NCBI RefSeq assembly: GCF_000368685.1
Contig: NZ_KB849628.1
Span: forward strand, 450,442 to 514,441
From: Acinetobacter baylyi DSM 14961 = CIP 107474
Lineage (GTDB): Bacteria > Pseudomonadota > Gammaproteobacteria > Pseudomonadales > Moraxellaceae
Length of the DNA: 64,000 bases
Reading direction: 5' to 3'
The position numbers and the translations under genes were made by a program. Every line of letters starts with the position of its first letter. The first letter of the stretch is position 1. Of this stretch, positions 11,031 to 59,598 are shown piece after piece. The notes below the pieces were generated by a model. That model searched no databases. It saw only the letters and a program-made list of their open reading frames with translations, and had not been told where the DNA came from.

Positions 11031-11033
11031 TTA

Positions 11034-11056: not shown

Positions 11057-11084
11057 TTGTTTCACATCAAAAATTAGAATGTAG

Positions 11085-12398: not shown

Positions 12399-12490
12399 AA
12401 AGGTATTAAAAAATAAAAGTGGAAAACTAATTTTCCACTTTCAAATTAAATATAAAGGATTATATTTAACCTATATTTTAGTACTTAAGT

Positions 12491-12937
12491 TTAAACATTA
12501 TTTGGTTTAAGCGTATAAAAGCTATCCTTTTGTTTAGAAAGTAAATTAATAAATTCAGGAATATTATCAATTGACAACGTATATGGATTAAATTCATCAA
12601 TATTATATTCAGAGAAAAAATTAACTATATCCTTGTGGAAAATAGCATATTTCATATGCCATTTAGAAAATAATTTATCTGTGATGTCTTCACAGTACAT
12701 TAATTCACAATTTTCATGACGAGGATCACTTAAGATTTTGTTATGAAAAAGATCATTAATTTTGATTTTGTTACCTTCAAGACACTGAACGAAATAGCCA
12801 TTTCCATAATAGAGTGCACCACAAATAGAATTTGGGGTATTAAAGTTTAATGCTTCAGTTAAAATATTAAATAATTCATTCATTGGATTATCGCATTCTT
12901 TTAACTTACTCACATACAGCATTCTTGCATCGCTCAT
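12491..12937 (-). CDS. BLUF-domain blue-light sensor protein 2
   Basis: This protein of 148 residues is a second short BLUF photoreceptor, clearly paralogous to the one at 9602-10069: both end in DEFNPY-L followed by IP-FI-LL. The flavin-site residues are kept: RMLYVSKL (Tyr), LNFNTPNSICGALYY (Asn), GYFVQCLEG (Gln), KWHMKYA (Trp, Met). The start at 12937 is chosen because GAG lies about 8 bases upstream and the domain begins there; an ATG 45 bases earlier adds only a low-complexity leader. Remnants of an old prophage and a broken tRNA copy separate the two BLUF genes. Confidence 0.87.
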   Translation of the reverse strand: MSDARMLYVSKLKECDNPMNELFNILTEALNFNTPNSICGALYYGNGYFVQCLEGNKIKINDLFHNKILSDPRHENCELMYCEDITDKLFSKWHMKYAIFHKDIVNFFSEYNIDEFNPYTLSIDNIPEFINLLSKQKDSFYTLKPNNV

Positions 12938-13519
12938 ACTTGTCTCGATATATAATAATTTAAAAAAATTAAAACAATACAAATACTTGCTGAAGGGATT
13001 TGCAATTTTAATCCATTAAAGAATACTCTAAACATCTTTTATAGGTAATGACTTAAATGGAAAATTTTCTTTTTTTTAATAAATTTAACAAATATTGATT
13101 TAGGGTTTCCCGTAGCAAGTTTAATAATATTTTAAATAAAATCAAATACTTGATAATTTATTTTTATGTTTATTAACTGTTTTTATAAGTTATTGATTAT
13201 CATTTAAAAAATACAAGGTGAAAGCCAACCAACATTTCTATTGCAAATTGATACATATTTTCTCTATTTGAGTGAGTACATATCTGTCCGTTTTACATTC
13301 ATTTCTAATCATTGAATTTGAACTGTAAAAACCTTCTTTAAAAAGGGCTCTTTGCTGTAAACCATATTTTTAATTTAATCTGGAATGATTTTATTGCGTA
13401 AAGTTGTACGTAAGTCCTTATTCAGCCATCATAAAAAAAGTATTGATGGACTTCAAATGAAACATTTATTCCCTAAACTTCTATACAATAAAGCTGTATT
13501 GAAAGCTGATTTCGCCCGC
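12938..13519. other. Gene-free spacer
   Basis: Very AT-rich, with no supported gene. It holds the promoter region of the second BLUF gene and then unrecognised decayed sequence leading into the broken integrase. Confidence 0.5.
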
Positions 13520-13838
13520 GCTGCTCTCACCTCATCGCCACCCGTTCGGAGCTAATCACAGAGCATAACCGAATTGCCAAGTTACATCCTTTTGCAGTCA
13601 CCGAAAATCACTTAACCCAGCAATTCCAAAAGTATCGGGATTTGTCTGAAGTGTATGAGCATCTTGAACCAAGACAGCGACCATCATTTCATGATTTGCG
13701 AGCACAGAGTGTTTACAACATTACCCAAAAATATGGCAAGGCATATGCGCAGGCATTGGCTGGCCATGTAACCGTAAAATGACAGATCATTATATTTCTG
13801 TCTATGAAGAACCGAAGCCAACTAGGGTGAGTTTTAGG
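13520..13838 (+). pseudogene. Tyrosine recombinase (integrase) C-terminal remnant
   Basis: A frame from about 13520 reads through RSELITEHNRIAKLHPF, HDLRAQSVYNITQKYG and ALAGHV, then stops and resumes one frame over with MTDHYISVYEEPKP. HDLR, GH and the Tyr in DHYIS are the catalytic-domain signature of phage integrases, but the N-terminal half is missing and a frameshift separates GH from Tyr. It lies on the opposite strand to the resident integrase and differs from it, so it came from another element using the same tRNA site. Confidence 0.8.
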
Positions 13839-13972
13839 TAATAACAGCGTCTTACAACTGATGTTTTTTTAGACTTATCCACTTTAAGACAAGACTGAGT
13901 TCCTCAAAGTACCTACTAAAACAAAAAACCCACCTGATGAGGGGAGGTTTAAGTTACTGATTTAACATTATC

Positions 13973-14023
13973 TTGGTAGGCATATCCAGACTCGAACTGG
14001 AAACCTCTACGATGTCAACGTAG
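13973..14023 (-). repeat. Prophage attachment site, left copy (displaced tRNA-Val 3' half)
   Basis: A 51-base stretch is identical, but for one base, to 63326-63376, the 3' half of the intact tRNA-Val from the CCA end through the anticodon stem. It is the copy expected at the far end of an element integrated into the tRNA gene. Together the two copies set the prophage length at about 49.4 kb. Confidence 0.9.
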
Positions 14024-14291
14024 TGTTTAAGCTTATAATTCAGCTATTTAAGAAGTATGGGTGTCAAATTGGTGTCGATAAATTTATGTAAGGAGAAGTT
14101 TCATATCTAAAAGGTAGAGAGAATAATGATCTAATTGTTATTGAGCTATATTTATACCTGTTTTAAAAAATAATTAAAAGCTTAATTTAAAGTTGATGAT
14201 TTTTTAATAGATTAAATAAAAAACCACCCGAAGGTGGTTTGTGGTTTGTGGTTTGAGTATTACATACAAAGAATAAATTACTGCATTTTAA
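14024..14291. other. Spacer with terminator-like hairpin
   Basis: No gene is seen. At 14221-14240 lies AAACCACC-CGAA-GGTGGTTT, a stable GNRA-like-loop hairpin that would end the leftward three-gene operon upstream of it; a twofold TTTGTGGTTTG repeat follows it. Confidence 0.6.
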
Positions 14292-14924
14292 TCAATAGCA
14301 TATATTTTCATCTCGATCAACTTTGTCATGGAAACGACAAAAATGAAGAGAAAGTTTAAATGTGAATAAGTAAGAAAAAAATTGATTTAACGACTTAATA
14401 TGTCGTTCAATACTAATAAGTTTTCTTGGTATTGAAAAAGTTTTATCTAATGAAACAACATAACCTTTTTCGTCGGGAGCATAACTGCCTTTTGAATCTA
14501 TAGGTAGATAGAAAAGATTAGTAACTCTGTATTTTTTAATGTCCTCAGTAAGATTTTTTATTTTTTCTTCAGATGCACCACTGGATAGTAGTATATTCTC
14601 AATTTTTTGCATATCAAATAGAGGAGCTAATAAACAGTCCATTGGTAAATCTCTGGGATTATTAACATCAATATCACAAGTATTACTTAAAATTATGCAT
14701 CTTGGAACAACGTGAGTGGTGTATTTATTATCACTAAAGTATGGAAAGGGAATATCACTAACAATATCCCCTTGTAAAAAAAAATCATTTTTAAATGAAC
14801 TAAATGGATCTTGAGTTATTTTTCCATTTTTAATAAAATTTTTTAATGCTACTTCTAATTTTTTTCGAGTTTCATCAGTTAAATAACCTGGCAGTAGTTG
14901 AGAAAAATCATCAGTAGCATCCAC
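14292..14924 (-). CDS. Unknown protein, third gene of TIGR04255-type operon
   Basis: This 210-residue protein is not recognised. It is soluble and charged, with CIILSNTCDIDVNNP near residue 75, a motif in which a conserved Cys-Asp pair follows a buried strand, and two aromatic segments near the C terminus. The start is a GTG at 14924 with AGGA seven bases upstream. It follows the 108-residue gene by 17 bases and ends before a strong terminator, so it closes an AT-rich operon. Its place just inside the attachment site is typical of prophage cargo, and an anti-phage role is possible but unproven. Confidence 0.6.
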   Translation of the reverse strand: MDATDDFSQLLPGYLTDETRKKLEVALKNFIKNGKITQDPFSSFKNDFFLQGDIVSDIPFPYFSDNKYTTHVVPRCIILSNTCDIDVNNPRDLPMDCLLAPLFDMQKIENILLSSGASEEKIKNLTEDIKKYRVTNLFYLPIDSKGSYAPDEKGYVVSLDKTFSIPRKLISIERHIKSLNQFFSYLFTFKLSLHFCRFHDKVDRDENICY

Positions 14925-14941
14925 ATTTTTTTCCTGTAAAT

Positions 14942-15268
14942 TTAAAATAACTCTAAAATATTGTCAGATAAAATCTTAGCAAACTCGGGATCAAGTGGCT
15001 TTGACTCATAGGACAGTTTTTCAAAAAAATCCATCATTAAGTCATCCAATAAAGCTTCCCCGTGGTTTGTGGCATAAGATACCGCAGAAAAAGTTTCTGG
15101 CGTTTTACTCAAATCCACGTAATGTGTTTTTGGAAATATCTCAGATGAATCCTTAAAACTCAAGTGGTTAGACTGACTAATTACAGATGAGCTGCTTAGA
15201 AAAGCGGTCACCAACATAACTCCAGTTAGAGTAGGTGGAATAGATTTTTGTATATTCAAATTAGTCAT
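14942..15268 (-). CDS. Small unknown protein, middle gene of TIGR04255-type operon
   Basis: This protein of 108 residues has a hydrophobic N-terminal stretch (TLTGVMLVTAFLSSSSVIS, about residues 13-31) that could be a membrane anchor or signal peptide, then an acidic tail ending KILSDNILELF. The second of two close ATGs (15268) has AAGGGG six bases before it and shares one base with the stop of the preceding gene, so the pair is translationally coupled. No domain is recognised. Confidence 0.55.
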   Translation of the reverse strand: MTNLNIQKSIPPTLTGVMLVTAFLSSSSVISQSNHLSFKDSSEIFPKTHYVDLSKTPETFSAVSYATNHGEALLDDLMMDFFEKLSYESKPLDPEFAKILSDNILELF

Positions 15269-15981
15269 TAGCATCCCCTTTTATTATAAATAGTTCTATA
15301 TATTGAATCTACTTTATCGTGAATAATATCAAGAACACGAATAAATTCATGCTCTGCATCATTTGGATTCTGTATTCCGCTATTATTAATTACATCAATA
15401 ATAAGCAAAGTTCCATTTAAGTCTGTTATTTTTCCAGTAACATCACTGATATTCCTAAGTTCTACATGAGAAGCAATATCTGTCATGATTATAAAATTAT
15501 CTTCGTGCAATTCTGTTTTTAATGCTAGTTTTGCATCGTCTTGCAACGCAGTTTCACCAATTTTCAGAGTAAAATTTAAATCATTCAACGACAAATCATT
15601 TCTAATCAAATTAGTGTATTTTAAAGAATACCTCTGTATTTGATCCAAAGGATTTTTAGACTTTAAAATATTTAAAATTTGTAAAGGTAGTTCTTTAAAG
15701 ATATTCCATCCTTCATATTGACCATCCAGAGCATTCTTCAATATTACAATAGATCCATCTGCAACTAACAATGAAAATGAAGAATAGTTAATTTTGTAAG
15801 AAGGTGTGTAATAAAAATCATTTTGCTGTAATTTTAAATCGTTAGGAATCTGCAATCCATCAGCATGAATGATACTTAAGTGATCGGAAAATACTTGATT
15901 AATAGCTATCAATAATTCTGTTGCAAAATTGAGTTTAGGTAAAAACCTAACTTCAAAGATGGCTTCAATTAATGGATTCAA
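15268..15981 (-). CDS. TIGR04255-family protein, first gene of three-gene operon
   Basis: This 237-residue protein begins NPLIEAIFEVRFLPKL, the characteristic opening of the sporadically distributed TIGR04255 family, and has the usual length. The family's function is unknown to me; it is found scattered in mobile and accessory DNA. The start is a TTG at 15981 with AAGGAA at proper spacing; no ATG fits the family start. It overlaps the next gene by one base. The three genes are AT-rich compared with phage structural genes, which suggests separate acquisition. Confidence 0.7.
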   Translation of the reverse strand: MNPLIEAIFEVRFLPKLNFATELLIAINQVFSDHLSIIHADGLQIPNDLKLQQNDFYYTPSYKINYSSFSLLVADGSIVILKNALDGQYEGWNIFKELPLQILNILKSKNPLDQIQRYSLKYTNLIRNDLSLNDLNFTLKIGETALQDDAKLALKTELHEDNFIIMTDIASHVELRNISDVTGKITDLNGTLLIIDVINNSGIQNPNDAEHEFIRVLDIIHDKVDSIYRTIYNKRGC

Positions 15982-16215
15982 CAGTAATTTCCTTACAATT
16001 CAATAACATTTGCGCTGAATATAGTCAAATTCATAACCAACAAGACTCGAAATTTAAATCAATACATACAATAACACCCAGTAGGTATGTATCTGGGTGT
16101 ATTGTTATAATATCGCTTAGTATACTTATGTGCAATATCTCAAATATTTTTTAATTTTAAAAAATGTCAAGACTTGTAATTCTCAACTGCGTTAAATATT
16201 GTCGCTTAATGATAA

Positions 16216-16236
16216 AAACCACCCGAAGGTGGTAAA
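16216..16236 (-). terminator. Terminator-like hairpin
   Basis: AACCACC-CGAA-GGTGGT right after the leftward small genes of the first Mnt/Arc/Ant module; nearly the same hairpin as at 14221-14240. The 16000-16210 stretch between it and the TIGR04255 gene holds that operon's promoter region and no gene. Confidence 0.6.
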
Positions 16237-16238
16237 TA

Positions 16239-16490
16239 TCACTTTTTAGGAAAATATTTGTTCTGATATTCCTCACGGTCCACATCAAAAACATTTGCCC
16301 AGTTTTCTGCATGGCAACGCGCTACATGAGCCAGTTTCTTAATATCTCCATGTTTATCCGCCTTTTCCTCTATGATTTTGCACATCACATTCAACTGCTC
16401 GGCAACGTCACTGGCGTAGGACATTATCTCAATCATGTGCTTGAGATCAGCTTCTAGCACGGCGATAGGTTCTTTCATGACGATATTCAT
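16239..16490 (-). CDS. Small helical phage protein of the first immunity module
   Basis: This 83-residue protein appears mostly helical (IAVLEADLKHMIEIMSYASD, then CHAENWANVFDVDREEYQ). It overlaps the preceding gene by four bases (ATGA), so they are co-translated. A similar type of protein (short, helical, with a Glu-Lys-rich middle) follows the second module at 42858-43154 and opens the other early operon at 60100-60390, suggesting one loose family. Function unknown. Confidence 0.55.
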   Translation of the reverse strand: MNIVMKEPIAVLEADLKHMIEIMSYASDVAEQLNVMCKIIEEKADKHGDIKKLAHVARCHAENWANVFDVDREEYQNKYFPKK

Positions 16491-16807
16491 TTGGATGCTC
16501 CTTGTTGTTGCTCAAGGTACGCATGTCCAACAACTCCTAACCGTTCTTTTGCCTGTTCTGCCAGTTGCAGCATTTCTTTGAGATACTCAACACAATTGGC
16601 TGAGCAATCGAGTAAGTTTAAAAATACCTCGGCCTCTTGCTCACTTTGTAATGTAGATTCCAAGAGTTCATCAAATGATCTTGTGAGTGTCGCCAATGTC
16701 ATACGGCGCATTATGCCGACCTCATCGGTTTCATATGCCTGGATTTCTTCAAAGCTTAATAATGCAGTGAAGTTGATATTGTTCTGTAGTTGAGTCATAC
16801 TATTCAT
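16487..16807 (-). CDS. Small phage protein of the first immunity module
   Basis: This 106-residue protein reads as helices, starts MNSMTQLQNN and contains MTLATLTRSFDELLES. AAGGA lies about nine bases before the ATG. It lies downstream of the Arc/antirepressor pair after a hairpin. A decayed copy at 11885-12105 shows that this gene also occurred in the earlier prophage. The start MNSM and the leader before it are shared with the gene at 42858-43154. No known domain. Confidence 0.6.
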   Translation of the reverse strand: MNSMTQLQNNINFTALLSFEEIQAYETDEVGIMRRMTLATLTRSFDELLESTLQSEQEAEVFLNLLDCSANCVEYLKEMLQLAEQAKERLGVVGHAYLEQQQGASK

Positions 16808-16834
16808 CGTTGATATTCCTTAATGTTGACAATC

Positions 16835-16872
16835 CAAAGCCCTTTGTTTTCGACGACTCAAGGGCTTTTTTA
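16835..16872. terminator. Hairpin shared by the two immunity modules
   Basis: AAAGCCCT and AGGGCTTTTTT enclose a loop containing TTGTTTTCGACGAC. The same hairpin with the same flank (TTATTGCCTGAATTAA) recurs at 43176-43216. The T-run is on the plus strand; on the minus strand it could act as an attenuator between antirepressor and downstream genes. Confidence 0.55.
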
Positions 16873-16881
16873 TTGCCTGAA

Positions 16882-17607
16882 TTAAACATGGTTGTTACCT
16901 AATAGTTTGGAAAGTCGGGTTAAGCCTTTTGGGGTGACTCTCACCTGCTCTGTGATTTTGTTTGAACCATCACCACGCGTTACTTCTGTCACTTTATGTT
17001 CTAAAAAGCCCGCCTGTACTTTGTCTTGATAACCGACATAGTGAGCTGAACCAGTACGCTTATAGATCCACTGCTTTTGAGACAGAAAAGAAATAAAATC
17101 TTTAGGACGCATTTGTAAGGCTTTAGCTGCATCAGTTAAACATAGACTTCCATTTGCAGTTGCAATTCGATCAAAAGCATCAATAGTCGGCTGCATGACT
17201 TCAACTTTATGCTCCAGTTCAACCATTTTTTCGGAGTACCCAAGTAATAACCCACGTAAAATATTTGGGTCAGACAGTGCCTGCATAGGATCAACAGGTT
17301 TTGCAACTTGGGCTTCAAGCTCTTGCCAACGGTCTACCAAACGAGCCGTGAATTCAGGGCAAAGTTGAGCAACTACGATAATGCTGTCTCGTTTGCCTTG
17401 TTCGCCAGTGAATTTGTATACAGTAGTGTTCTGCTTACGCCCGATTGAGTTTAAAAATGACGTTTCCACCATTGGGGGAAGCGTTATAACCCCTTTTTCT
17501 GCAAGACGTTCAATAGATTGTTTTACTTTATCAGGACGTGATTGAACCAATTCGGAAATTTCTAAACTATTGATAGATTGTGTTTGCAAAGGTGCAATTG
17601 CATTCAT
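16882..17607 (-). CDS. Rha/KilA-C-type phage antirepressor
   Basis: This 241-residue protein has an N-terminal region resembling phage Rha-type regulators (ISELVQSRPDKVKQSIERL, about residues 18-36, with NTTVYKFTGEQGKRDS further on) and a C-terminal KilA-C/ANT-type DNA-binding domain (LCLTDAAKALQMRPKDFISF and KQWIYKRTGSAHYVGYQ). Such proteins antagonise phage repressors and favour lytic growth. The start overlaps the stop of the Arc-like gene by four bases (ATGA), giving the arc-ant arrangement of phage P22 immI, with a Mnt-like gene divergent to it. It should normally be silenced by the Arc/Mnt-like proteins. Confidence 0.8.
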   Translation of the reverse strand: MNAIAPLQTQSINSLEISELVQSRPDKVKQSIERLAEKGVITLPPMVETSFLNSIGRKQNTTVYKFTGEQGKRDSIIVVAQLCPEFTARLVDRWQELEAQVAKPVDPMQALSDPNILRGLLLGYSEKMVELEHKVEVMQPTIDAFDRIATANGSLCLTDAAKALQMRPKDFISFLSQKQWIYKRTGSAHYVGYQDKVQAGFLEHKVTEVTRGDGSNKITEQVRVTPKGLTRLSKLLGNNHV

Positions 17608-17762
17608 GTTCTTACTTCCTTACTTTGATTAACCAGTAACTCAACTGCTTTATTTATTAAATAATTCATTGAGCGTTCTTCTTGTTGCCCTTTCGCTTTT
17701 AACTTTTGATGTAGCTCAATGTTGAGGCGAACTTTTACGTCTACTGTCTTTACTTTTTTCAT
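17604..17762 (-). CDS. Arc-like ribbon-helix-helix repressor, first module
   Basis: This 52-residue protein reads MKKVKTVDVKVRLNIELHQK, then a helix with KAKGQQEERSMNYLINKAVE. The beta strand followed by two helices and the 'RSMNYLINKA' segment are typical of Arc/Mnt/CopG dimers, which bind DNA with the strand. The gene lies directly upstream of the antirepressor, overlapping it by four bases, and directly downstream of three repeated palindromes, its probable operators. Confidence 0.8.
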   Translation of the reverse strand: MKKVKTVDVKVRLNIELHQKLKAKGQQEERSMNYLINKAVELLVNQSKEVRT

Positions 17763-17777
17763 TATTGCTCCAATTTA

Positions 17778-17845
17778 GAACCACCGTGGTTCATATGAAT
17801 TAAATTTAAACCACCGTGGTTCTATTGTCAATACCACCGTGATCT
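17778..17845. promoter_or_regulatory. Three palindromic operators of the first Mnt/Arc module
   Basis: GAACCACCGTGGTTC (17778-17792) is a near-perfect palindrome; AAACCACCGTGGTTCT (17808-17823) repeats it and TACCACCGTGATCT (17832-17845) is a weaker copy. They fill the gap between the divergent Arc-like and Mnt-like genes and so can control both promoters. Confidence 0.8.
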
Positions 17846-17879
17846 ATAAAATAAGATTAATTTTTTATGGTTTATCCCT

Positions 17880-18293
17880 ATGAGCAGAGAAGATCCACAG
17901 TTAAAAGTACGCCTTCCCCAAGAGCTAAAAGACAAAATTACTGAATCTGCTTCGAATTTAGGTAGATCCATTAACGCTGATGTGGTTGCTAGACTCGAAG
18001 AATCATTTCAAAGTTTTACATCAAATAAAATTGATTTTGCACATGGATATCTAATTGCTTTTCTACGTGCTCAAGCCGCTATTTATCACGCTGCAATTAT
18101 GGACTTAGGCAACGCATTTCAAAAAGAACCATTCCCAGATCTACTGCATGAACAGACTAGATATAAAATTCTATTCAATGAGATCAATAAATTAATAAAA
18201 AGCCTTGAAGAAAAATTGTTGCCTTTTGATAGTGCAGATAATAAAGATGCGATTTTAGAATTATTAAATAATCCTAAAAATCTAGAAGAATAA
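17880..18293 (+). CDS. Mnt/Arc-family repressor, first module
   Basis: This 137-residue protein starts MSREDPQLKVRLPQELKDKI and has GRSINADVVARLEES, the standard Arc/Mnt ribbon-helix-helix domain (residues about 6-45), followed by a long helical tail that could form a tetramer interface as in Mnt. It is divergent from the arc-antirepressor pair, as mnt is in P22. It likely keeps the antirepressor off during lysogeny. A paralogue is at 44068-44331. Confidence 0.82.
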   Translation: MSREDPQLKVRLPQELKDKITESASNLGRSINADVVARLEESFQSFTSNKIDFAHGYLIAFLRAQAAIYHAAIMDLGNAFQKEPFPDLLHEQTRYKILFNEINKLIKSLEEKLLPFDSADNKDAILELLNNPKNLEE

Positions 18294-18307
18294 GTTACAT
18301 TCATAGA

Positions 18308-18333
18308 AAAAGCCTCATCGTGGGTGATGAGGC
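18308..18333. terminator. Bidirectional terminator
   Basis: AGCCTCATC-GTGGGT-GATGAGGCT, a nine-base-pair stem. Read on the minus strand it is followed by TTTTT, so it ends the leftward gene at 18429-19343; it also lies just after the rightward Mnt-like gene. Confidence 0.75.
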
Positions 18334-18428
18334 TAGTATGGGTTTGTTTTTCAAAGCTTAAAAGGAAATTGAACTATTTCTTAAATTCCGAAGTAATTAA
18401 TAACCAAAATTTTCCGGAAATATTTTAC

Positions 18429-19343
18429 TTAACTTTTTTCCATATTTTTTACATCTTCATAAGCTAAATAGCTTAGAGCATCTATAATACTAAGCTCGGT
18501 AACATCATCCGCACCATCAAACACCATTTGATCTAATATCTTTCTTCTGATGGGTTCTACGCTTTTTCTTAATGTATCCTCACCATACTCACCTTTCTTA
18601 TATAAAACTGAGCAGATTATGGCATTTGTTATTTTTATATTTTCAGCTAACTCAAGAATTTTTAAATCCATATATGGCAATAGCTTATATGATGCCCAAT
18701 TTAATAAATCTTTTTTAGATAAAGATTTGTTTTTTTCATTAAATCCGAGTTTTTCTCTAATTTGAGCCAATATTTTTTTAAACTCTCCAAATATAACGTG
18801 ATCTGGATAATAAGGATTTATAGTAATTGGATAATCATATTGTTTCACATGAAATTTAAAGTGAGACTTCAAAATATCCATAACTGGGGAAAATGGCTTA
18901 TCTTCTCCTGTATATTTTAATTTTATTCCACTATTTTTAATCATTAGTTGGATACTTTCAAACTCATCTTCATACAATTCATTCACAGGTAAATGCTTGT
19001 ACATAAAATTATAATGATCAGAACTTGAAATCTCTAAATCTATTATTTCATTATTATCTTTTTTATATTTTACAAACAAATCCAAACTCAAAGGCTTTTC
19101 TAAATGAGATGCAACTATTAAGGTCATTGCTTCTTGTTCTTCTGTATCTGTTAATTTATTCGTCCCGATCCAATTAGAAAGACCATTTTCTAAAATATCA
19201 TGTAATAAGAATCTAGACTGTATCAAGAAAAACCACTCAAAAGCAGATAGCTTGTCCATATCATTGTACTTATTGATATCGAAAACTTTTGGTAAATCAT
19301 CCGTATTTTTTATTAGCTTTCTCAAAGTGATTGAACTCGACAA
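18429..19343 (-). CDS. Unknown protein, DUF6387-like
   Basis: This 304-residue soluble protein starts near MSSSITLRKLIKNTDDLPKV and continues FDINKYNDMDKLSAFEWFFL, an opening (LPK-F-l-Y then a helix with an aromatic-rich core) that I associate with DUF6387; I hold that lightly. The start is probably the TTG at 19343, with only a weak GAG site, so it is uncertain. It is a single-gene unit between two terminators in the cargo arm of the prophage and is AT-rich. Lone genes of this kind in prophages are often exclusion or defence factors, but no catalytic motif is seen here. Confidence 0.6.
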   Translation of the reverse strand: MSSSITLRKLIKNTDDLPKVFDINKYNDMDKLSAFEWFFLIQSRFLLHDILENGLSNWIGTNKLTDTEEQEAMTLIVASHLEKPLSLDLFVKYKKDNNEIIDLEISSSDHYNFMYKHLPVNELYEDEFESIQLMIKNSGIKLKYTGEDKPFSPVMDILKSHFKFHVKQYDYPITINPYYPDHVIFGEFKKILAQIREKLGFNEKNKSLSKKDLLNWASYKLLPYMDLKILELAENIKITNAIICSVLYKKGEYGEDTLRKSVEPIRRKILDQMVFDGADDVTELSIIDALSYLAYEDVKNMEKS

Positions 19344-19436
19344 TATGACTCGTAAAACTATACCCCAACTTGCCCGACTTGTGGGGTAGAATTTAAGGGT
19401 AAGGTGTTGTATTGTTTGGGGGATTTTCTAGGTAAA

Positions 19437-19456
19437 AGAAAACCCACCGAAGTGGG
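19437..19456 (-). terminator. Terminator of the lipoprotein gene
   Basis: On the minus strand ACCCAC-TTCG-GTGGGT followed by TTTTCTTTT, a UUCG-capped intrinsic terminator, 130 bases past the hydrolase lipoprotein gene. Confidence 0.7.
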
Positions 19457-19591
19457 TCTAACCAAAATACTAAGACTTAATGAACAAACGTATAACAGCG
19501 ACCATCTACCATGTAAAAATTGTCATAATAATATCTCTCAAAACCCTGATACCAGCTTGAATTTCATGAGATATCTATAGATCCAAAATTT

Positions 19592-20965
19592 TTAATTCAT
19601 CTCTTGATTCTCGCATTTAGTATCAATTAACTGATCTAAAGGAACAAGACCGCATTTTTCGTTACCAACCCAGTAAGCATGTTTCCAAAAATGATATTCA
19701 TCAAATTCACCATGCTTTTGAGGACCAGCGCCAAAACCAAACTTTGTTAAATGAACCTGATTTTTCACCGAATCAGGGAATATGGTATCAGCTGCTCTTA
19801 CCATATTAAACCATCCACCAGACGTTCGATCTGTAAAAGATTTAATCGTAGTTAAATACGTGTCAATCCAAATAAGCAGGCTACCTCTTGGTACTGAATC
19901 GAATGCAGTTGATTCAGAAAGTTCTCTATATGGATCTAAAGACAAGTTATAAAATTGTACGCTTTGATTTTTTCTTAAAATAGGTACTACATTACTCTCA
20001 ACATCTTTAAGTGATGCTGCAGCCCCCATGTAAACAATATTTTTATAGTTTAAGTTTGGTTTCCTCATCAGAATATTATTCGCTACCATAGTACCCATAC
20101 TATGCCCAATAAGGGTAACTTCAGGTTTAGATGAATCTCTATCGACTTTATCCAAAAATTTTTCTAAAGCAGTTTTTGCATCTCGCTTTCTGATAAAAGC
20201 AGAGTCTTTAGTAATTAATAATTCAGTTCTACGAGAGAGTGAATCCCATGTGCCATGACCAAAGCCATCAACCAAAGGTGCCGTTACAAACTTAATCGGG
20301 TTCGCAAGGGATGATATATTTTTAAAATTCAATCCTCTTGTTTCACCCGTTGTATGAATATGTAGTTTTTCACTTTCGGGCATCATCTCAAGATTTGCCC
20401 TATTAGTGTAATACGCTTTTTCTTCTTTACTCTCAATGCGAATAGGTACTGAGGATTGAGCTAAAAGAGCTTCTGTCGTTGCTCTTGGCGCATGTGCTAC
20501 GCTACGAGCTGTATCCTCTATAAAAATAAATGGAGATGTTAAAGGCCCTAATACAGGTCTTCTTTCTCCACCTCTTATAAAAAATAAGTGATCAAGATAA
20601 TTAGTATAAGGACCTGCCTGCCACCCGACTAAGACGATGTAATTTTCTTCATCATCATAATTACTCAAAATTTGGTTCGCTTTTCCAGTAGCATTTTGAA
20701 AAGTATTTAATCCTCCATGAATGAACATCGTGATTTTAGGTTTACCTGATTTTTGATAATCTTCAAATATATTGTTAACATATAAATTGACATCTTTGAT
20801 CACTTTTTTTGAATATGGATCAATTAAATCTCCATTTTTATTAATATATATCAAGTGGCTTTTAAGCTTATCCTTATCAACTTTAGAGTATTTATTTTTA
20901 TCAATCGGGATAGACGAACAAGCACCCAACAATAAAAATAATGTGAATAGTAAAATAATTTTCAT
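19592..20965 (-). CDS. Alpha/beta-hydrolase lipoprotein (prophage cargo)
   Basis: This 457-residue protein starts with a lipoprotein signal peptide: MKIILLFTLFLLLGACSS, with cleavage before the Cys at residue 16. The mature part has ITMFIHGGLN near residue 80 (oxyanion-hole strand) and LIGHSMGTMVANN near residue 287, the GHSMG nucleophile elbow of a serine hydrolase; possible catalytic His residues follow in the C terminus (KHGEFDEYHFWKHAY). It should be membrane-anchored, facing the periplasm or surface. Possible substrates are lipids or esters. GGGGGAG lies properly before the ATG. It has its own terminator and no operon partner, as expected of a lysogenic-conversion gene. Confidence 0.8.
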   Translation of the reverse strand: MKIILLFTLFLLLGACSSIPIDKNKYSKVDKDKLKSHLIYINKNGDLIDPYSKKVIKDVNLYVNNIFEDYQKSGKPKITMFIHGGLNTFQNATGKANQILSNYDDEENYIVLVGWQAGPYTNYLDHLFFIRGGERRPVLGPLTSPFIFIEDTARSVAHAPRATTEALLAQSSVPIRIESKEEKAYYTNRANLEMMPESEKLHIHTTGETRGLNFKNISSLANPIKFVTAPLVDGFGHGTWDSLSRRTELLITKDSAFIRKRDAKTALEKFLDKVDRDSSKPEVTLIGHSMGTMVANNILMRKPNLNYKNIVYMGAAASLKDVESNVVPILRKNQSVQFYNLSLDPYRELSESTAFDSVPRGSLLIWIDTYLTTIKSFTDRTSGGWFNMVRAADTIFPDSVKNQVHLTKFGFGAGPQKHGEFDEYHFWKHAYWVGNEKCGLVPLDQLIDTKCENQEMN

Positions 20966-21239
20966 ATTTCTCCCCCGATTATAAATGTTATTTAATAGTA
21001 GCCTTGCTTCTAATATCTAAAATATTCATATATTAAAGAAGGGTAAAAGGCATAACTTATAAATTATGCTTAAATATTTATATTGTCTATAGCTATGATT
21101 TTATTTATTAAATCTTACCTAATATCTATATTTATCTAACCTCATATTCGGGCCAATTATTTATCAATTTCTATATAATTGGGTAAACAATGTCAAATCT
21201 AGTAAACTTAATCCTTGGATTTAAGTCGTGGGGGATAAA
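20966..21239. other. Intergenic promoter region
   Basis: AT-rich spacer between divergent genes (hydrolase lipoprotein leftward, small conserved gene rightward). It must hold both promoters; I assign no specific boxes. Confidence 0.4.
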
Positions 21240-21503
21240 GTGGAGAATCATGAAATTATTCTTCAAGATGAACATCACCAACAGTTTAAGATTGTCAAGG
21301 TTCAAGATGTTCGTTTTGATGAGGTAACAATCGCGAATACCCACCAATGGTTATGGGTATATGACCATAGTGCCGAGTTTTTCCCGTTCGAGTTATGGGA
21401 TCAGCTTGATAATGCAAGTGTTCATCAAAAGATCAAATTGGGTAATCAAGTTTTTAAAGTTATTAAGATTTTAACCAAAAAAACTAAAATTAGGTATTCA
21501 TGA
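21240..21503 (+). CDS. Small conserved protein of unknown function, copy 2
   Basis: This 87-residue protein starts at GTG 21240 (VENHEIILQDEH) after GGGGAT; an earlier in-frame GTG at 21228 lies on top of that ribosome site. It is roughly 80% identical by eye to the product of 10260-10523 and of the same length, sharing HQWLWVYD-SAEFFPFELWDQ. No domain recognised. The pair shows that this gene belongs to the phage family's left arm rather than to the host. Confidence 0.6.
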   Translation: MENHEIILQDEHHQQFKIVKVQDVRFDEVTIANTHQWLWVYDHSAEFFPFELWDQLDNASVHQKIKLGNQVFKVIKILTKKTKIRYS

Positions 21504-21829
21504 ACTGACTAGGTGAGTGTGTGAATTGTTTGATACATTTTTAAAATATGAATGATTAAAAACACTTCATTATTTAAATTCAGCCTACTAATCTTGATTG
21601 TATAGATGTAAGAAAAATTTTATCAAAATTGCCAATCACATCTAATTCCAACCCATTAGAATAAAGTTTTCCTTCACAACTTGTTCACATTACAATCAAC
21701 GTATAATTCATAAATATTTGAATAAAATCATCTTATATTATTCTGCACACTTCTTCTTACATCTAAAAGATCGACAACTCAACACTTTTACATGAACATC
21801 TTACCAATTCTAAATAAGAAGGAATTTAT
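21504..21829. other. Spacer without gene
   Basis: About 330 bases; only the ribosome site AAGGA for the following transporter gene is evident near its end. Confidence 0.5.
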
Positions 21830-22423
21830 ATGATTTCATGGCTATTTGTTAGTTTAGTGATCACAATTTTGTTAACGCCAGGGCCTACTAATACGCTCCT
21901 AGCCTCTTCAGGTATTGAATCTGGAATTCGTAAATCTCTTAAACTGATTCCAGCCGAAGCATTCGGTTATCTTATTGCAATCTCAGTTTGGGGATTTTTA
22001 ATTGATTCGATTGCAGATAAGTTCCCAGTGATTCCGCCAATCATGAAATTACTGAGTGCAACTTACATTATTTTTTTAGCTCTCAAGCTTTGGAAGACAT
22101 CTACCATTGATGCAGACTTAAATCAGCCGTCTATCACTGTTAAGGCTTTATTCTGTGCAACTTTACTTAATCCTAAAGCATTGCTATTTGCTTCAGCTAT
22201 CTTCCCTGCAGCAAGTTGGACATCATCACATAGTTATTTGATGCACATGGGTACATTTCTAAGCCTAATTCTCCCTATTGCAACTTTCTGGATTTTCATT
22301 GGTTCGGTTTTAGTTTCTAATCGTATTTCTTGGCTAAATCAGAAAAACCTTAAACGTACTGCTTCAATTGTACTCATTAGTTTCTCGATGCCATTAAGCT
22401 ATTCAGCTCTTACTTCATTTTAA
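21830..22423 (+). CDS. LysE/RhtB-family exporter (prophage cargo)
   Basis: This 197-residue inner-membrane protein has about six hydrophobic spans. The N-terminal VITILLTPGPTNTLLASSG carries the family's TPGP signature, and ATLLNPKALLFASAIFP carries the second conserved motif (LNPKA). LysE/RhtB proteins export amino acids or related small molecules. It is the only metabolic-type gene in the prophage. An IS end lies immediately downstream, hinting at how it was picked up. AAGGA precedes the ATG by 7 bases. Confidence 0.85.
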   Translation: MISWLFVSLVITILLTPGPTNTLLASSGIESGIRKSLKLIPAEAFGYLIAISVWGFLIDSIADKFPVIPPIMKLLSATYIIFLALKLWKTSTIDADLNQPSITVKALFCATLLNPKALLFASAIFPAASWTSSHSYLMHMGTFLSLILPIATFWIFIGSVLVSNRISWLNQKNLKRTASIVLISFSMPLSYSALTSF

Positions 22424-55946: not shown

Positions 55947-56192
55947 TTAGATGGGTGCTGACATAAGATTGGATTTATGGTTAGGACGTAATTCAATCCA
56001 AATATCTTCGTAATCATCTGGAAATAAATCTTTGCGAGTGCATAGACCTTTATCTTCAGCAATTACAGCTAAGCGGATTTTGCGATCTCTGGGAATTGCT
56101 TTCCATCCACTTACGGATGCAGCGGTGATACCTAAAAATCTAGCAACAGCAGTTACACCACCTAAAAGCTCAATAAATTGATCATCAGTCAT
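55947..56192 (-). CDS. Cro-like repressor
   Basis: This 81-residue protein starts MTDDQFIELLGGVTAVARFL and has a helix-turn-helix GITAASVSGWKAIPRDRKIR, as in Cro/YdaS-type phage repressors. It is the first gene of the leftward early operon and should bind the same three operators as CI. AGGAG precedes the ATG by 7 bases. Confidence 0.82.
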   Translation of the reverse strand: MTDDQFIELLGGVTAVARFLGITAASVSGWKAIPRDRKIRLAVIAEDKGLCTRKDLFPDDYEDIWIELRPNHKSNLMSAPI

Positions 56193-56221: not shown

Positions 56222-56286
56222 ATTAGGTATTCCTTATATTTTATCAATAGGAATACCTTATTTATTTTATGTTAGGATTTCCTAAT
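56222..56286. promoter_or_regulatory. Three-site early operator between cro and cI (OR-like)
   Basis: ATTAGGTATTCCTTAT (56222-56237), AATAGGAATACCTTAT (56246-56261) and GTTAGGATTTCCTAAT (56271-56286) share the palindrome TTAGG-N4/5-CCTAA, with centres 24-25 bases apart. This spacing and number copy lambda OR. They should control the leftward cro promoter and the rightward cI promoter. Confidence 0.85.
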
Positions 56287-56301
56287 AGACTAGGTAAGAT
56301 C

Positions 56302-56712
56302 ATGAAAACATTAGCTGAACGACTTAAATATGCGATGGAAATTTTGCCACCTAAGAAAATCAAGGGTGTCGAACTTGCTCGTGTAGTTGGAGTTAAACCA
56401 CCATCTGTCAGCGATTGGCTTTCAGGTAAATCTAGATCTATGGAAGGTGAAAATTTACTAAGAGCAGCCAAATTTTTAGATGTAAATCCAGTCTGGCTAG
56501 CTACTGGTACAGGTAAACCCAAAACCACAACCGAAGATGGTTCTAATTTATTTTTGATAGAAGAACCTAATTCTGTAGAAATTCCAAATCAGGATATTCG
56601 TCAATTAGTTGATTCATTGCTGCTTTTAGATTCAAAAGGAAGACTTTCTCCAGAATTAATTAAAGCAATAAGAGCTACTATCGATATATCAATAAACTCA
56701 TTAAATAACTGA
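56302..56712 (+). CDS. Short CI-like prophage repressor without cleavage domain
   Basis: This 136-residue protein starts MKTLAERLKYAMEILPPKKI and has a helix-turn-helix VELARVVGVKPPSVSDWLSG, with NPVWLATGTGKP closing the DNA-binding domain. The remaining 60 residues are a short helical end (QLVDSLLLLDSKGRLSPELI), with no S24 (LexA/CI-type) peptidase domain and so no RecA-stimulated self-cleavage. An ATG at 56269 lies on the third operator; the ATG at 56302 fits the family start better. It is divergent from cro, and is followed after 37 bases by the three-gene cassette. Confidence 0.82.
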   Translation: MKTLAERLKYAMEILPPKKIKGVELARVVGVKPPSVSDWLSGKSRSMEGENLLRAAKFLDVNPVWLATGTGKPKTTTEDGSNLFLIEEPNSVEIPNQDIRQLVDSLLLLDSKGRLSPELIKAIRATIDISINSLNN

Positions 56713-56749: not shown

Positions 56750-57733
56750 ATGTCTGAAACTGAAGCTATAGCAAAAATGTCAGAGATCTTATCAAATGAT
56801 ATCTTTCCTTATTTCCGTTGGAACTCTATCGGTGCAAAAAATCTTAATTGGGACTGTGTAAAACTTACAGAACATAAAAAAGAAAAGACTAAAACACATC
56901 CAGCTGATGTTGTCTTTTGGTATAATGACCCATATACCGACAATACCATTTATATGCATACAGATTTAAAAAGCTACGGGAAAAAAACGATTGCTAGCAA
57001 AGATTTTACTTCAGTTTTAAAAAGTTTAGCCCAACAAATAGAGTGTGCAGAAATTAGTGATTCTTGGAAAGAAAAATATTTAAAGGAAAACTCAAATTAC
57101 ATCATCAACGGATTGCTGTTTGTTTACAATCATGATAATGATGCTGATTTATCTCTCATTAATAAGCTTTCTTCTGTGAAAGCTACATCCATTCAATTAC
57201 CAGTCAGTAAAAATATTTTTGTGTTAGATCCTATTGATATTGGTTGGTTAGTAGATATTGGCAATGGTATAAGTAATTTACTTAGTAAGTCTAAAATAGA
57301 AAAAGATTATTGTTTTTTTTATCCACAAAAAACTTTCCAAGGTGTTGATGGTTTTGAGGAAAGTGCAACTATAGAATTATTAAAATCAAATGTAATAATT
57401 CTTAAATCTTCAAAAGAAACAAGATCACAACAATTGAAAGTATTCTATCGTGGTCGTGGAGAAACAACTGAAGAATTTCAATATTTATTAGATTATTTTA
57501 GACACAATCAATTTCTTGAATATAAAGAAGATACTATAGAAATATTTTTTTCAAAAAATGTTGATAAAAATGCAGCCAACTTATTTGATAAAAGTAGACA
57601 TGAATACATCGAACGATATACAAAAAATCAGGAAACATTAACTTTTTGTATAAATTCTATCTCGCTTAATGGTTTAGATCATATAGATAAAAGTCAGACA
57701 TTTAATGAAAATATTATTGGTATGGGGGATTAA
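56750..57733 (+). CDS. Candidate defence nuclease, first gene of cI-linked cassette
   Basis: This 327-residue protein is not in a family I recognise. Near residues 51-74, PADVVFWYND and YMHTDLKSYG give D53...D72-L-K74, the D-xn-(D/E)-x-K signature of PD-(D/E)XK nucleases, with hydrophobic residues around it as expected of the core strands. The rest is mixed alpha/beta with charged C-terminal helices. GGAGG stands 5 bases before the ATG at 56750. It follows cI in the same direction by 37 bases and is followed by the second gene after 2 bases. It is notably AT-rich. Confidence 0.65.
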   Translation: MSETEAIAKMSEILSNDIFPYFRWNSIGAKNLNWDCVKLTEHKKEKTKTHPADVVFWYNDPYTDNTIYMHTDLKSYGKKTIASKDFTSVLKSLAQQIECAEISDSWKEKYLKENSNYIINGLLFVYNHDNDADLSLINKLSSVKATSIQLPVSKNIFVLDPIDIGWLVDIGNGISNLLSKSKIEKDYCFFYPQKTFQGVDGFEESATIELLKSNVIILKSSKETRSQQLKVFYRGRGETTEEFQYLLDYFRHNQFLEYKEDTIEIFFSKNVDKNAANLFDKSRHEYIERYTKNQETLTFCINSISLNGLDHIDKSQTFNENIIGMGD

Positions 57734-57735
57734 GT

Positions 57736-58881
57736 ATGAAATATTTGAAATTTGATAGTCTAGTTATATCTGATCGCGATATTATAGACCTTCTGGATGC
57801 TCAAAAAGGAAAAATATCTAAAGAAAAGCTATTAGACTTTTTGCAAGAAAGAGGAATTTTCTGTTCAGAAAATGAAACTCGAAATGCATTACATGAAAGA
57901 ATTGCTGCTTTGAGTATAGATTGGTTTTTAATTGAAGATATATTAAGTCTAGCAGCATCAAAAGAAAATTTTCAAAAAGTTACTGCTACGAATTTCACCC
58001 TACCTAAAGCCGATGCTCTTGAAACCACACTTGAAAATTTAAAATCTCAACTTAGTAATAAGGATTTTATTGTTGATAAATTAAAAAACGGCAATTATGA
58101 AATTCAATATAAAGTTGACAAAATTGAAAAAAATAACGCAAGACTAATTCAAAGAACTAGTAAAGATGAAAAAATCTCTATTAACTTGGATGGTGATCAA
58201 GCTACTATTGTTAATACAGTAGGCGAAGGAACAGATACCGTAGTCCAAACTTTTTTTAATGAATTAGAACGTAACTCTAAGACAGAAATAAAAAACACTA
58301 GCATTAATTTTTCATCTATAATTGATAACACTATAATAAATAAATATTTCCTTGATCTAATAAAAATTGATGCCAAAAAATATAAGGTTATTGATGTAAT
58401 AAAATTAAAATTAAATAAATTTAACTCTAATGTAAGTGAAGAACTTGAATTAGAAGATGTCGATATTACTGATGAACTTAATTCCGATCCAGATAAACAA
58501 AAAGATGAATTAGATAAGGAAGATATTAAATCTGCACTTATATCAGGCTCATCACTATTGGCAAGCAATCTATTTAAGGTACTGTCTAATAAAGGCTATT
58601 TTATCAGTAGTATTGCTTGGTTAGTATTAGAAAAGACTGGTGAGAAACGGAAAATTGAGTATAGTTCGGGTTTTACAGATCCAGACAAAAGAGATATTTT
58701 TACATTTGAAAGTAAGGGTTTTTTTGAAATCAACTCGGCAACTCAAGATTACAAAAAAAATAGAACCACATGGAAAAGTAATCAGAGGAAAATGATAGAG
58801 TTTGCTTTTCAAAAGTATGCCTTTAGTCTTTTTCAAACAGTAATAGAAAAAGTTGATAGTAATGAGGGCTCTAATGAATAA
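57736..58881 (+). CDS. Unknown protein, second gene of cI-linked cassette
   Basis: This 381-residue protein has a helical N terminus (DIIDLLDAQKGKISKEKLLD), a middle of mixed strands, a very acidic linker around residues 235-265 (ELELEDVDITDELNSDPDKQ) and a C-terminal region with SGSSLLASNLFKVLSNKGYF. No catalytic motif is seen. GGGGGA lies before the ATG. The two-base gap from the first gene and the eight-base overlap with the third suggest that the three proteins are made together and may form a complex, this one being a plausible sensor or scaffold; that is inference. Confidence 0.6.
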   Translation: MKYLKFDSLVISDRDIIDLLDAQKGKISKEKLLDFLQERGIFCSENETRNALHERIAALSIDWFLIEDILSLAASKENFQKVTATNFTLPKADALETTLENLKSQLSNKDFIVDKLKNGNYEIQYKVDKIEKNNARLIQRTSKDEKISINLDGDQATIVNTVGEGTDTVVQTFFNELERNSKTEIKNTSINFSSIIDNTIINKYFLDLIKIDAKKYKVIDVIKLKLNKFNSNVSEELELEDVDITDELNSDPDKQKDELDKEDIKSALISGSSLLASNLFKVLSNKGYFISSIAWLVLEKTGEKRKIEYSSGFTDPDKRDIFTFESKGFFEINSATQDYKKNRTTWKSNQRKMIEFAFQKYAFSLFQTVIEKVDSNEGSNE

Positions 58882-59542
58882 ATACAAATTATTTAAATTT
58901 GAAAGTTCTTTAAGTTTTCATGAATTAAAAGATCGTCTCGTAGATAATAATAATTATCATGATTCTTCATTTGATTTAAAAACAATCCGCCTTACAGATA
59001 AGGAACTTTGCTTTAATTTCGTAGAAAATAAGCTAATGGAGACATATTTATTAGATGTTTATGGTAATCAACAACTTATCAAATATCTTCAAGTTGATAG
59101 TTTTGAATTTCAAATTATTCTAAAAGATAAGGATATATTCTTATTAATTATTAATGCACCTAGAAGCTTAAAGATTTTTAAACAAACTATTGCTGAAATA
59201 TTAGATTATCAAATTTCTATAACTGATATACAAATTAATCCAATCGAATGGATCGAAAGGTTAGAGTTTTCGTCTGAACACTCATTTGAAATTCACTCAC
59301 TTGAAATTAAAGATATCATTTTTAATTCAAGTACAAATGGTTCTATGACCATAAAAAGTCAAATCGATCTAAGAAAAACCTATGAAAATAATGTTAAATC
59401 TAATAATTATAAAATTTGTAAAGCTCTGATTATAAATGATTCCTACTTTAAAGGGCGATTTATTTTAAGTAAGGATGCATCTTTTCAGTTAGATTGCATG
59501 AATTCAAAAGCATTAATTGACCTATTATTGATAAATTTATAA
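58874..59542 (+). CDS. Unknown protein, third gene of cI-linked cassette
   Basis: This 222-residue protein starts MNKYKLFKFESSLSFHELKD. It is Ile/Leu/Asn-rich with alternating strands and helices, and no recognised domain or membrane span. GAGGG at 58864-58868 decides the start at 58874, which overlaps the second gene by eight bases. It is the last gene before the second operator and early promoter, so the cassette fills the place of lambda rexAB. Confidence 0.6.
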   Translation: MNKYKLFKFESSLSFHELKDRLVDNNNYHDSSFDLKTIRLTDKELCFNFVENKLMETYLLDVYGNQQLIKYLQVDSFEFQIILKDKDIFLLIINAPRSLKIFKQTIAEILDYQISITDIQINPIEWIERLEFSSEHSFEIHSLEIKDIIFNSSTNGSMTIKSQIDLRKTYENNVKSNNYKICKALIINDSYFKGRFILSKDASFQLDCMNSKALIDLLLINL

Positions 59543-59555
59543 ATATTTATTAAAA

Positions 59556-59598
59556 ATTAGGTTTACCTATTGACTTAAATATTAGGTATGCCTAATAT
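59556..59598 (+). promoter_or_regulatory. Second early promoter with two repressor operators (OL/PL-like)
   Basis: TTGACT (59570-59575) and TAATAT (59593-59598) are spaced 17 bases apart. One operator, ATTAGGTATGCCTAAT (59581-59596), lies over the -10 region and another, ATTAGGTTTACCTAT (59556-59570), over the -35. Both match the sites between cro and cI. The promoter fires rightward into the small early genes ending at the possible excisionase gene. Repressor binding here would shut this operon in the lysogen. Confidence 0.85.

What the first reader, a model, noticed from the sequence alone, without database searches (positions are those of the whole stretch)
56750..59542. Three-gene AT-rich cassette in the rexAB position, with a nuclease-like first protein
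Seen: three unrecognised genes (327, 381 and 222 residues) follow cI in the same direction with gaps of 37 bases, 2 bases and then an 8-base overlap, and end at the second operator/promoter. They are clearly more AT-rich than phage replication genes. The first protein shows D53-x18-D72-L-K74, a PD-(D/E)XK-like signature. Known: lambda keeps rexAB, a phage-exclusion system, at exactly this place and expresses it from the cI promoter in lysogens. Inference: this is a cI-co-transcribed multi-gene exclusion system (nuclease effector plus two partners) that I cannot match to a named system.
Basis: partly seen in the sequence, partly recalled or inferred. Interest (0 to 1): 0.85.

Follow-up and report, generated by a model that had tools for sequence, protein, structure and literature searches.

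The report
Prophage three-gene antiviral nuclease cassette
A dormant virus in an Acinetobacter genome carries, right behind its own repressor gene, a known three-gene antiviral set of unexplained mechanism, and predicted protein shapes suggest a DNA-cutting enzyme with a partner that resembles a bacterial DNA-gripping ring and proteins of our chromosome-segregation machinery.

Summary
The three genes (56750-57733, 57736-58881, 58874-59542, +) match PADLOC models Hp1, Hp2, Hp3 at E 7e-49, 4e-17, 7e-13, i.e. Rst_3HP, a named system; a three-gene system of that origin is reported to protect E. coli against phage P1 (PMC9122126, passages). Of 175 loci, 155 hold all three in order on one strand and the other 20 end too early to tell. 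Here the set fills the rexAB position: cro-like gene, operators, cI, Hp1-2-3, operators.

What is added is a mechanism lead. Hp1 is predicted (pLDDT 90.7) as a PD-(D/E)XK-type nuclease; H50, D53, D72, K74 are invariant in 132 of 132 sequences. Hp2 (pLDDT 88.7) best matches RdgC, a DNA-encircling recombination protein (Z 10.4), and kinetochore CENP-L/CENP-N. Hp3 shows weak profile similarity to RdgC. I propose a two-part RdgC-like DNA clamp that delivers the nuclease. Of five phages of the published eight-phage panel that I could scan, only P1 encodes an RdgC (HrdC): a cheap test of the trigger. Clamp and trigger are inferences.

The parts
55947..56192 (-). Small HTH-type gene in the cro position (81 aa); Cro-like by position and appearance, not scanned against a family library
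   Evidence: ORF list; name is inference
56223..56285 (.). First operator cluster: three palindromic sites at 56223, 56247, 56272
56269..56712 (+). cI-type repressor, 147 aa as listed (a start at 56302 is more likely, from relative L005 and the operator at 56272); HTH but no Peptidase_S24 match
   Evidence: Pfam HTH_3 1.6e-07; relatives' repressors of 231-241 aa, one of which (L003) was scanned and has Peptidase_S24 6.4e-20
56750..57733 (+). Hp1: predicted PD-(D/E)XK-type nuclease, 327 aa
   Evidence: PADLOC PDLC03004 7.1e-49; model pLDDT 90.7; fold comparison; 132-sequence conservation
56906..56971 (+). Codons of D53 (56906-56908), D72 (56963-56965) and K74 (56969-56971)
   Evidence: sequence; D, D and K in 132 of 132
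57736..58881 (+). Hp2: helical N-terminal domain (about 13-73) plus RdgC/CENP-L-like double alpha-beta body (about 76-371) with an acidic linker (about 228-263), 381 aa
   Evidence: PADLOC PDLC03005 3.7e-17; model pLDDT 88.7
58874..59542 (+). Hp3: 222 aa, weak profile similarity to RdgC over most of its length; no model made
   Evidence: PADLOC PDLC03006 7.3e-13
59557..59595 (.). Second operator cluster (sites 59557, 59582) with a TTGACT-N17-TAATAT promoter-like match at 59570

Best explanation
The cassette is a member of the Rst_3HP antiphage system in the rexAB position of a lambda-like prophage, most likely read from the cI promoter in the lysogen so that the prophage guards its host. Proposed working: Hp2 and Hp3, both built on the RdgC / CENP-L-CENP-N fold, pair into a clamp around DNA; the clamp recognises incoming phage DNA, perhaps its replication or recombination intermediates, and brings or activates Hp1, a PD-(D/E)XK nuclease, which cuts it. 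Shown by computation: family membership, three-gene linkage, Hp1 fold and invariant motif, Hp2 fold. Weakly supported: Hp3 fold. Inferred: the Hp2-Hp3 pair, DNA as ligand, the target, co-transcription, and whether the cell survives.
For: Hp1/Hp2/Hp3 model matches; homologues labelled Rst_3HP__Hp1/2/3 in PQ189295.1; a Klebsiella P2-like phage holds the set between portal and replication genes, the gpA-gpQ hotspot of PMC9122126, which reports a three-gene system protecting against P1 (passages). All three in order on one strand in 155 of 175 loci, 3 of these with a split gene; the other 20 end within 1.5 kb after Hp1 or inside it. In 125 distinct complete loci 123 have a gap of at most 50 at each junction, median -4. 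Hp1: D53, D72, K74, H50 in 132 of 132, E3 in 131; 41 of 41 sequences that lack the first search pattern keep H50/D53 and 34 of 34 that lack the second keep D72/K74; helix 2-22, strands 49-59 and 66-76, helix 87-102, strand 117-127; EndoMS/NucS Z 8.2, FokI 7.6, Hachiman entries 7.2 and 7.1, McrBC 7.1. Hp2: E. coli RdgC Z 10.4 over 220 residues, Iml3/CENP-L 9.0 over 194; 8 of the 9 PDB matches at E<=1e-3 are CENP-N, by title or chain letter; 4 of 9 BFVD matches at E<=1e-3 are named recombination-associated/RdgC proteins. RdgC and Chl4/Iml3 are described as alike in PMC4080450 (passage). Hp3 profile against RdgC: 201 columns, P 0.0079; permuted profiles score as high in 1 of 150 and 4 of 150; Hp2 0 and 2 of 150; Hp1 44 and 34 of 150.
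Against: Plain Foldseek gives Hp1 no PDB match at E<=1e-3, and its top rows (acetyl-CoA carboxylase) look spurious; the Hp1 Z-scores are in the range that unrelated folds can reach (note). Hp2-RdgC is 4.5 A rmsd at 9% identity; the CENP-N rows have TM of 0.18-0.33 and rmsd of 8-13 A. At E<=0.01 no Hp2 or Hp3 member matches Pfam RdgC or CENP-N; one Hp3 member touches CENP-L at 0.0074. A first, narrower RdgC profile gave nothing. The Hp3-RdgC signal is near noise, and the Hp2-RdgC profile alignment starts at residue 3 of Hp2 whereas the structural one starts at 76, so its first part is out of register. No complex was modelled. Only P1 is reported as restricted, which fits a general DNA clamp poorly.
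Confidence: 0.55

Rival explanations
1. Abortive infection: the complex senses a phage protein made after infection (such as a phage RdgC or another recombination protein), and Hp1 then cuts all DNA, so that the infected cell dies before the phage matures.
For: P1 is the phage reported as restricted and the only one of 5 scanned panel phages with an RdgC (3 of the 8 panel phages have no accession and were not scanned). Phage single-stranded DNA-binding proteins trigger several defence systems, Hachiman among them (PMC10732053, passages); Hachiman entries are among the fold matches of Hp1.
Against: E. coli has its own RdgC (control), so the sensor would have to tell the two apart. One positive among five phages is a 1 in 5 coincidence.
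Confidence: 0.25
2. Hp2 and Hp3 act in protein assembly or allosteric control and do not grip DNA; the RdgC/CENP-L-like body is only a common double alpha-beta arrangement, as parts of it are in RnlA and in kinase KA1 domains.
For: Single halves of Hp2 match KA1 domains (Z 8.0-9.1), AMPK (to 8.4) and RnlA (7.9); Hp3 has no invariant residue and Hp2 only four.
Against: RdgC and CENP-L match over both halves (220 and 194 residues); phage RdgCs lead in an independent library; weak profile similarity as well.
Confidence: 0.15
3. The set serves the prophage itself (lysogeny control, its own recombination or packaging) and is not exclusion.
For: Sits inside the immunity region; none of 4 phage records that carry the set has an RdgC of its own, though RdgC is rare in phages anyway (290 of 50,697 records by one tblastn query).
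Against: The same set occurs in P2-like, filamentous and lambda-like phages and in bacteria of several phyla, and Hp1 relatives on 21 of 72,556 plasmid records (only Hp1 sought); a relative is reported to protect against P1.
Confidence: 0.05

Closest known systems
Rst_3HP (PADLOC/DefenseFinder Hp1-Hp2-Hp3; Rousset et al. 2022)
   Same: All three proteins match, in the same order; prophage setting
   Different: Sits behind cI in a lambda-like immunity region, not in the P2 gpA-gpQ hotspot; Acinetobacter host; activity of this copy untested
Lambda rexAB
   Same: Same place: genes co-directional with cI between the two operator regions (lambda layout recalled)
   Different: No RexA/RexB family match, three genes and not two, predicted nuclease
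RdgC (PF04381) and phage RdgC such as P1 HrdC
   Same: Fold of the Hp2 body over 220 residues; weak profile similarity of Hp2 and Hp3
   Different: No family match at sequence level; extra helical domain and acidic linker in Hp2; two different proteins beside a nuclease, not one homodimer
Inner-kinetochore CENP-N/CENP-L (yeast Chl4/Iml3)
   Same: Fold of Hp2; a helical N-terminal domain before the alpha-beta body, as CENP-N has a PYRIN domain before its CENP-L/N homology domain (PMC5777823, passages)
   Different: No accepted sequence match; eukaryotic chromatin function; common descent not shown; the Hp2 helical domain was not compared with PYRIN on its own
Hachiman HamA, EndoMS/NucS, McrC, SduA, LmuA nucleases
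   Same: PD-(D/E)XK core by fold comparison; nucleases that work with partner proteins or as dimers on DNA (recalled)
   Different: The window's Hp2 and Hp3 have no ATPase or helicase match; own conserved HPxD...DLKSY signature and a second, RPB5-like domain

Membership tests
Rst_3HP | Three adjacent genes matching Hp1, Hp2 and Hp3 in order | tested here: met
   E 7.1e-49, 3.7e-17, 7.3e-13; order in 155 of 175 loci, the rest cut off. The curated system cut-offs of PADLOC/DefenseFinder were not available to me
Rst_3HP | Protection against phage | not testable with these tools
   Reported for a three-gene P2-hotspot system against P1 (PMC9122126, passage); not assayed for this copy
PD-(D/E)XK nuclease | alpha-beta-beta-beta-alpha-beta core | tested here: met
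   Order of elements in a model of pLDDT 90.7; core aligned to EndoMS, FokI, Hachiman and McrBC entries at Z 7-8; plain Foldseek did not show it
PD-(D/E)XK nuclease | Conserved acidic pair and lysine | tested here: met
   D53, D72, K74 in 132 of 132, robust to the search patterns; spatial geometry not measured, no coordinates were at hand
PD-(D/E)XK nuclease | DNA cleavage | not testable with these tools
   needs the bench
RdgC (PF04381) | Match to the family model | tested here: not met
   No PF04381 match for the window proteins at E<=1 or for 79 Hp2 and 84 Hp3 members at E<=0.01, so Hp2/Hp3 are not filed as RdgC. My own RdgC model reached the window's Hp3 only at E 0.6
RdgC (PF04381) | Fold | tested here: met
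   Hp2 only: Z 10.4, 220 residues, 4.5 A, phage RdgCs first in BFVD. Hp3 not modelled
CENP-N / CENP-L | Match to the family model | tested here: not met
   1 of 84 Hp3 members hits CENP-L at 0.0074, about what 84 scans give by chance; no CENP-N among the 10 families listed for 79 Hp2 members at E<=0.01
RexAB | Match to RexA/RexB families | tested here: not met
   No such Pfam match for the three proteins at E<=1; that Pfam holds RexA/RexB models is recalled

The most novel reading that the evidence does not exclude
Rst_3HP is a nuclease steered by a heterodimeric RdgC / CENP-N-CENP-L-like DNA clamp, a defence architecture without ATPase or nucleotide signal, and it is set off by the recombination machinery of the invading phage, in P1 by the phage's own RdgC (HrdC). 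The fold shared by a bacterial recombination ring, a phage-defence complex and the inner kinetochore would make this a bacterial model for how that fold grips DNA.
Probability: 0.2. Interest if true: 0.8.

Novelty: new member of a known kind. Interest (0 to 1): 0.5.

Why it matters
The locus itself is one more copy of a named system in a lambda-like rexAB position. What could matter is that two of the three 'hypothetical proteins' now have testable identities: a nuclease, and a partner with the fold of RdgC and of kinetochore CENP-L/N. I met no mechanism for 3HP in my searches (open-licence PMC only, mostly seen as listings; of the 4 papers that name Rst_3HP I opened passages of one, and of 484 papers only 25 were listed), so absence from print is not shown. 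Mutants and one phage-gene deletion could settle the question.

Tried and rejected
Unnamed system: rejected, PADLOC matches all three. PHROGs: all three match families of unknown function (7059, 6531, 5850). Pfam and NCBIfam: no match over a cut-off for the window's three proteins. Among homologues, 13 of 79 Hp2 members hit DUF4518 (best 1.5e-5), in the N-terminal part in the two that I saw; no other family recurs like this, and I could make nothing of it. PDB sequence search with profiles: weak queuine tRNA-ribosyltransferase rows for Hp1 (E 1.5 or more), E 0.28 or more for Hp2, none for Hp3. Foldseek on Hp1: no E<=1e-3. Hp2-Hp3 common origin by profile: P 0.03-0.16, no better than reversed controls. 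Hp2 or Hp3 against a first RdgC profile of 31 sequences: P 0.8 and 0.076; the wider profile of 57 gave the signal reported, so the profile was improved after a negative look. Other defence genes: 10 further window ORFs, none matched PADLOC at E<=0.001. RdgC in the genomes or records of other carriers: 0 of 10, several of them fragments. cI beside 3HP as a general rule: rejected; of 10 chosen upstream neighbours scanned, 2 are S24-type repressors, others a methylase, an AAA+ protein, a PIN protein, an RNA polymerase fragment, and 4 without match; among the closest relatives L003-L006 have cI directly upstream, L007 does not; the Vibrio phage has a LexA-like neighbour.

Dropped before counts: Hp1 shorter than 290 aa, Hp2 shorter than 320, Hp3 shorter than 195, and identical sequences. 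The 175 loci contain repeats of one contig fetched in different calls; 125 are distinct and complete. The alignments used for the models were thinned at 85% identity and leave out phage-record and unnamed-genome loci. The RdgC panel check covered 5 of 8 phages.
Full report
1. The observation. Ribosome-binding-like sequences precede each start. The unit lies in a prophage with terminase, portal, head protease, tape-measure, tail, replication-initiation and integrase genes, the last next to a tRNA-Val. Two operator clusters of one palindrome bound it: three sites before cI and two after Hp3, 5 of the 9 best matches in 64 kb. With the cro-like gene to the left (label by look only), this is the layout of the lambda immunity region (recalled), with the cassette in the place of rexAB. 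The host is an Acinetobacter: a genome of the window's genus has an Hp1 identical to that of a locus titled Acinetobacter pragensis. The genome is 3.6 Mb in 10 contigs; two IMG/VR contigs are 100% identical in Hp1, one from IMG genome 637000002, which I recall as A. baylyi ADP1.

2. Identity. PADLOC names all three: Hp1 7.1e-49, Hp2 3.7e-17, Hp3 7.3e-13. A Vibrio phage record carries the labels Rst_3HP__Hp1, Hp2, Hp3 on the homologues. A Klebsiella P2-like phage has the set between portal and replication genes, which corresponds to the gpA-gpQ hotspot of Rousset et al. 2022 (PMC9122126; I saw the abstract and passages). That paper says that a system of three genes without clear domains protects against P1. 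The DefenseFinder paper names Rst_3HP among systems encoded mostly on prophages (PMC9090908, passage). The link between the P1 result and the label Rst_3HP rests on name, origin and location; the figure and the supplementary table were not seen.

3. Distribution. Relatives of Hp1 turn up in lambda-like, P2-like and filamentous phages, on 21 of 72,556 plasmid records, and in Pseudomonadota, Acidobacteria, Verrucomicrobia and Cyanobacteria by record title. It is sparse: 3 of 99 genomes of the genus and 4 of 398 of the phylum, the window's own and one weak match with in-frame stops included. Of 175 loci, 155 have Hp1-Hp2-Hp3 in order on one strand, 3 of them with a split gene; in 16 others at most 1.5 kb is held after Hp1, and 4 end inside Hp1. 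In 125 distinct complete loci the median gap is -4 at both junctions; 4 loci have one gap above 50, three of them the split ones. This looks like an obligate, translationally coupled trio.

4. Hp1. In 132 distinct sequences H50, P51, D53, D72, K74 and S75 never vary, nor do W24, C36, Y58, P61, C99, F124, N127 and P192; E3 is missing once. The search patterns contained parts of the motif, so I checked for bias: 41 of 41 sequences without the first pattern keep H50/D53, 34 of 34 without the second keep D72/K74, and 4 of 5 new loci found by a profile search of whole genomes show HPxD and DLKS, the fifth being the weak partial match. The model (pLDDT 90.7, 74 sequences) has helix 2-22, strands 49-59 and 66-76, helix 87-102 and strand 117-127, the PD-(D/E)XK order. 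The second-look aligner puts EndoMS/NucS (8.2), FokI (7.6), Hachiman (7.2, 7.1), McrBC (7.1), SduA (6.9), Can2 and Card1 (6.6, 6.4) on the N-terminal half, and RNA-polymerase chains E (RPB5 by chain letter, recalled; best 8.6) on 164-312. Plain Foldseek alone would not have shown this. I take the nuclease assignment as likely because motif and topology agree; a catalytic geometry was not measured.

5. Hp2. The model (pLDDT 88.7, 79 sequences) has four helices (13-73) and then a double alpha-beta body. The body matches E. coli RdgC over 220 residues (Z 10.4) and Iml3/CENP-L over 194 (Z 9.0); Foldseek's best PDB rows are CENP-N (8 of 9 at E<=1e-3, at low TM; the ninth is spermine synthase); in the viral library four of nine rows at E<=1e-3, ranks 1, 2, 4 and 8, are named recombination-associated/RdgC proteins, the others an exonuclease and four uncharacterised ones. 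The likeness of Chl4/Iml3 to RdgC and TBP is in print (PMC4080450, passage), so these matches form one fold group. Between the halves lies a loop of low confidence that is acidic in nearly all relatives: net acid of 3 or more in 119 of 125. An acidic gate that keeps the clamp closed is a guess.

6. Hp3. No model could be made (jobs spent). Evidence for an RdgC-like fold is weak but points one way: the depositors of a Pseudomonas filamentous phage call its Hp3 'RdgC-like exonuclease', though those of a second one call it hypothetical; its profile aligns with a 57-sequence RdgC profile over 201 columns from residue 1, P 0.0079; permutations reach the score in 1 of 150 and 4 of 150 (the trimmed profile used there gave P 0.029), Hp2 in 0 and 2, Hp1 in 44 and 34. 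With one side reversed P was 0.44-0.70 for Hp3 and 0.31-0.34 for Hp2. The Hp2 profile alignment (P 0.021) is out of register with the structural one at its start.

7. How it may work. RdgC is a ring-shaped dimer on DNA (recalled; a PDB title says 'toroidal architecture for DNA binding'); CENP-N has a domain that binds CENP-L, and it grips DNA (PMC5777823, passages). Two RdgC-like proteins beside a nuclease would suggest a heterodimeric clamp that places Hp1 on DNA. What is recognised is open. P1, the phage reported as restricted, encodes an RdgC, HrdC; lambda, T4, 186 and T7 gave no match. E. coli has RdgC too, while the window's genome has none, so host RdgC cannot be a general trigger. One positive among five phages may be coincidence, but P1 without hrdC is a simple test.

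8. Verdict. A known, named system in a setting that repeats the lambda rexAB theme; the new part is a fold-level account of two of its three proteins and a testable trigger.

Noticed in passing
56269-56712: The window's cI (147 aa) has the HTH of its relatives (L003, L005; 231-241 aa) but not the C-terminal self-cleaving Peptidase_S24 part that the scanned relative L003 has; induction by RecA-driven self-cleavage would then be lost.
   Followed up: partly
L210 (P1), L234 (ICP1), L236 (qdvp001): In three different phages rdgC lies behind a gene annotated as nucleotide pyrophosphohydrolase, directly in two and after one small gene in the third.
   Followed up: no
genomes: RdgC is nearly absent from the family of the host: 1 of 41 genomes, against 47 of 143 drawn from the class.
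   Followed up: no
Hp1 residues 164-312 (57239-57685): The second domain of Hp1 matches chain E (RPB5, recalled) of RNA polymerases (Z 8.6); possibly a second, inactive nuclease-like fold.
   Followed up: no
L017 5001-6003; L088 5992-6989; L077 6996-8109: Hp1 (L017, L088) or Hp2 (L077) is split into two frames: broken copies or sequencing errors.
   Followed up: no
L145, between Hp2 and Hp3: 1320 bases separate Hp2 from Hp3 in this one phage contig: an insertion inside the set.
   Followed up: no
window 9000-22000: A further AT-rich stretch (GC 0.28-0.33 in 11 of 13 kilobases); five of its proteins have no PADLOC match.
   Followed up: partly
L107 4359-5978: A DNA methylase with an Mrr-type nuclease domain lies 22 bases before Hp1 in one phage contig, so 3HP can sit next to a restriction-type gene.
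   Followed up: no
Hp2 N-terminal part: 13 of 79 Hp2 homologues hit DUF4518 (best 1.5e-5), in the N-terminal helices in the two seen.
   Followed up: partly
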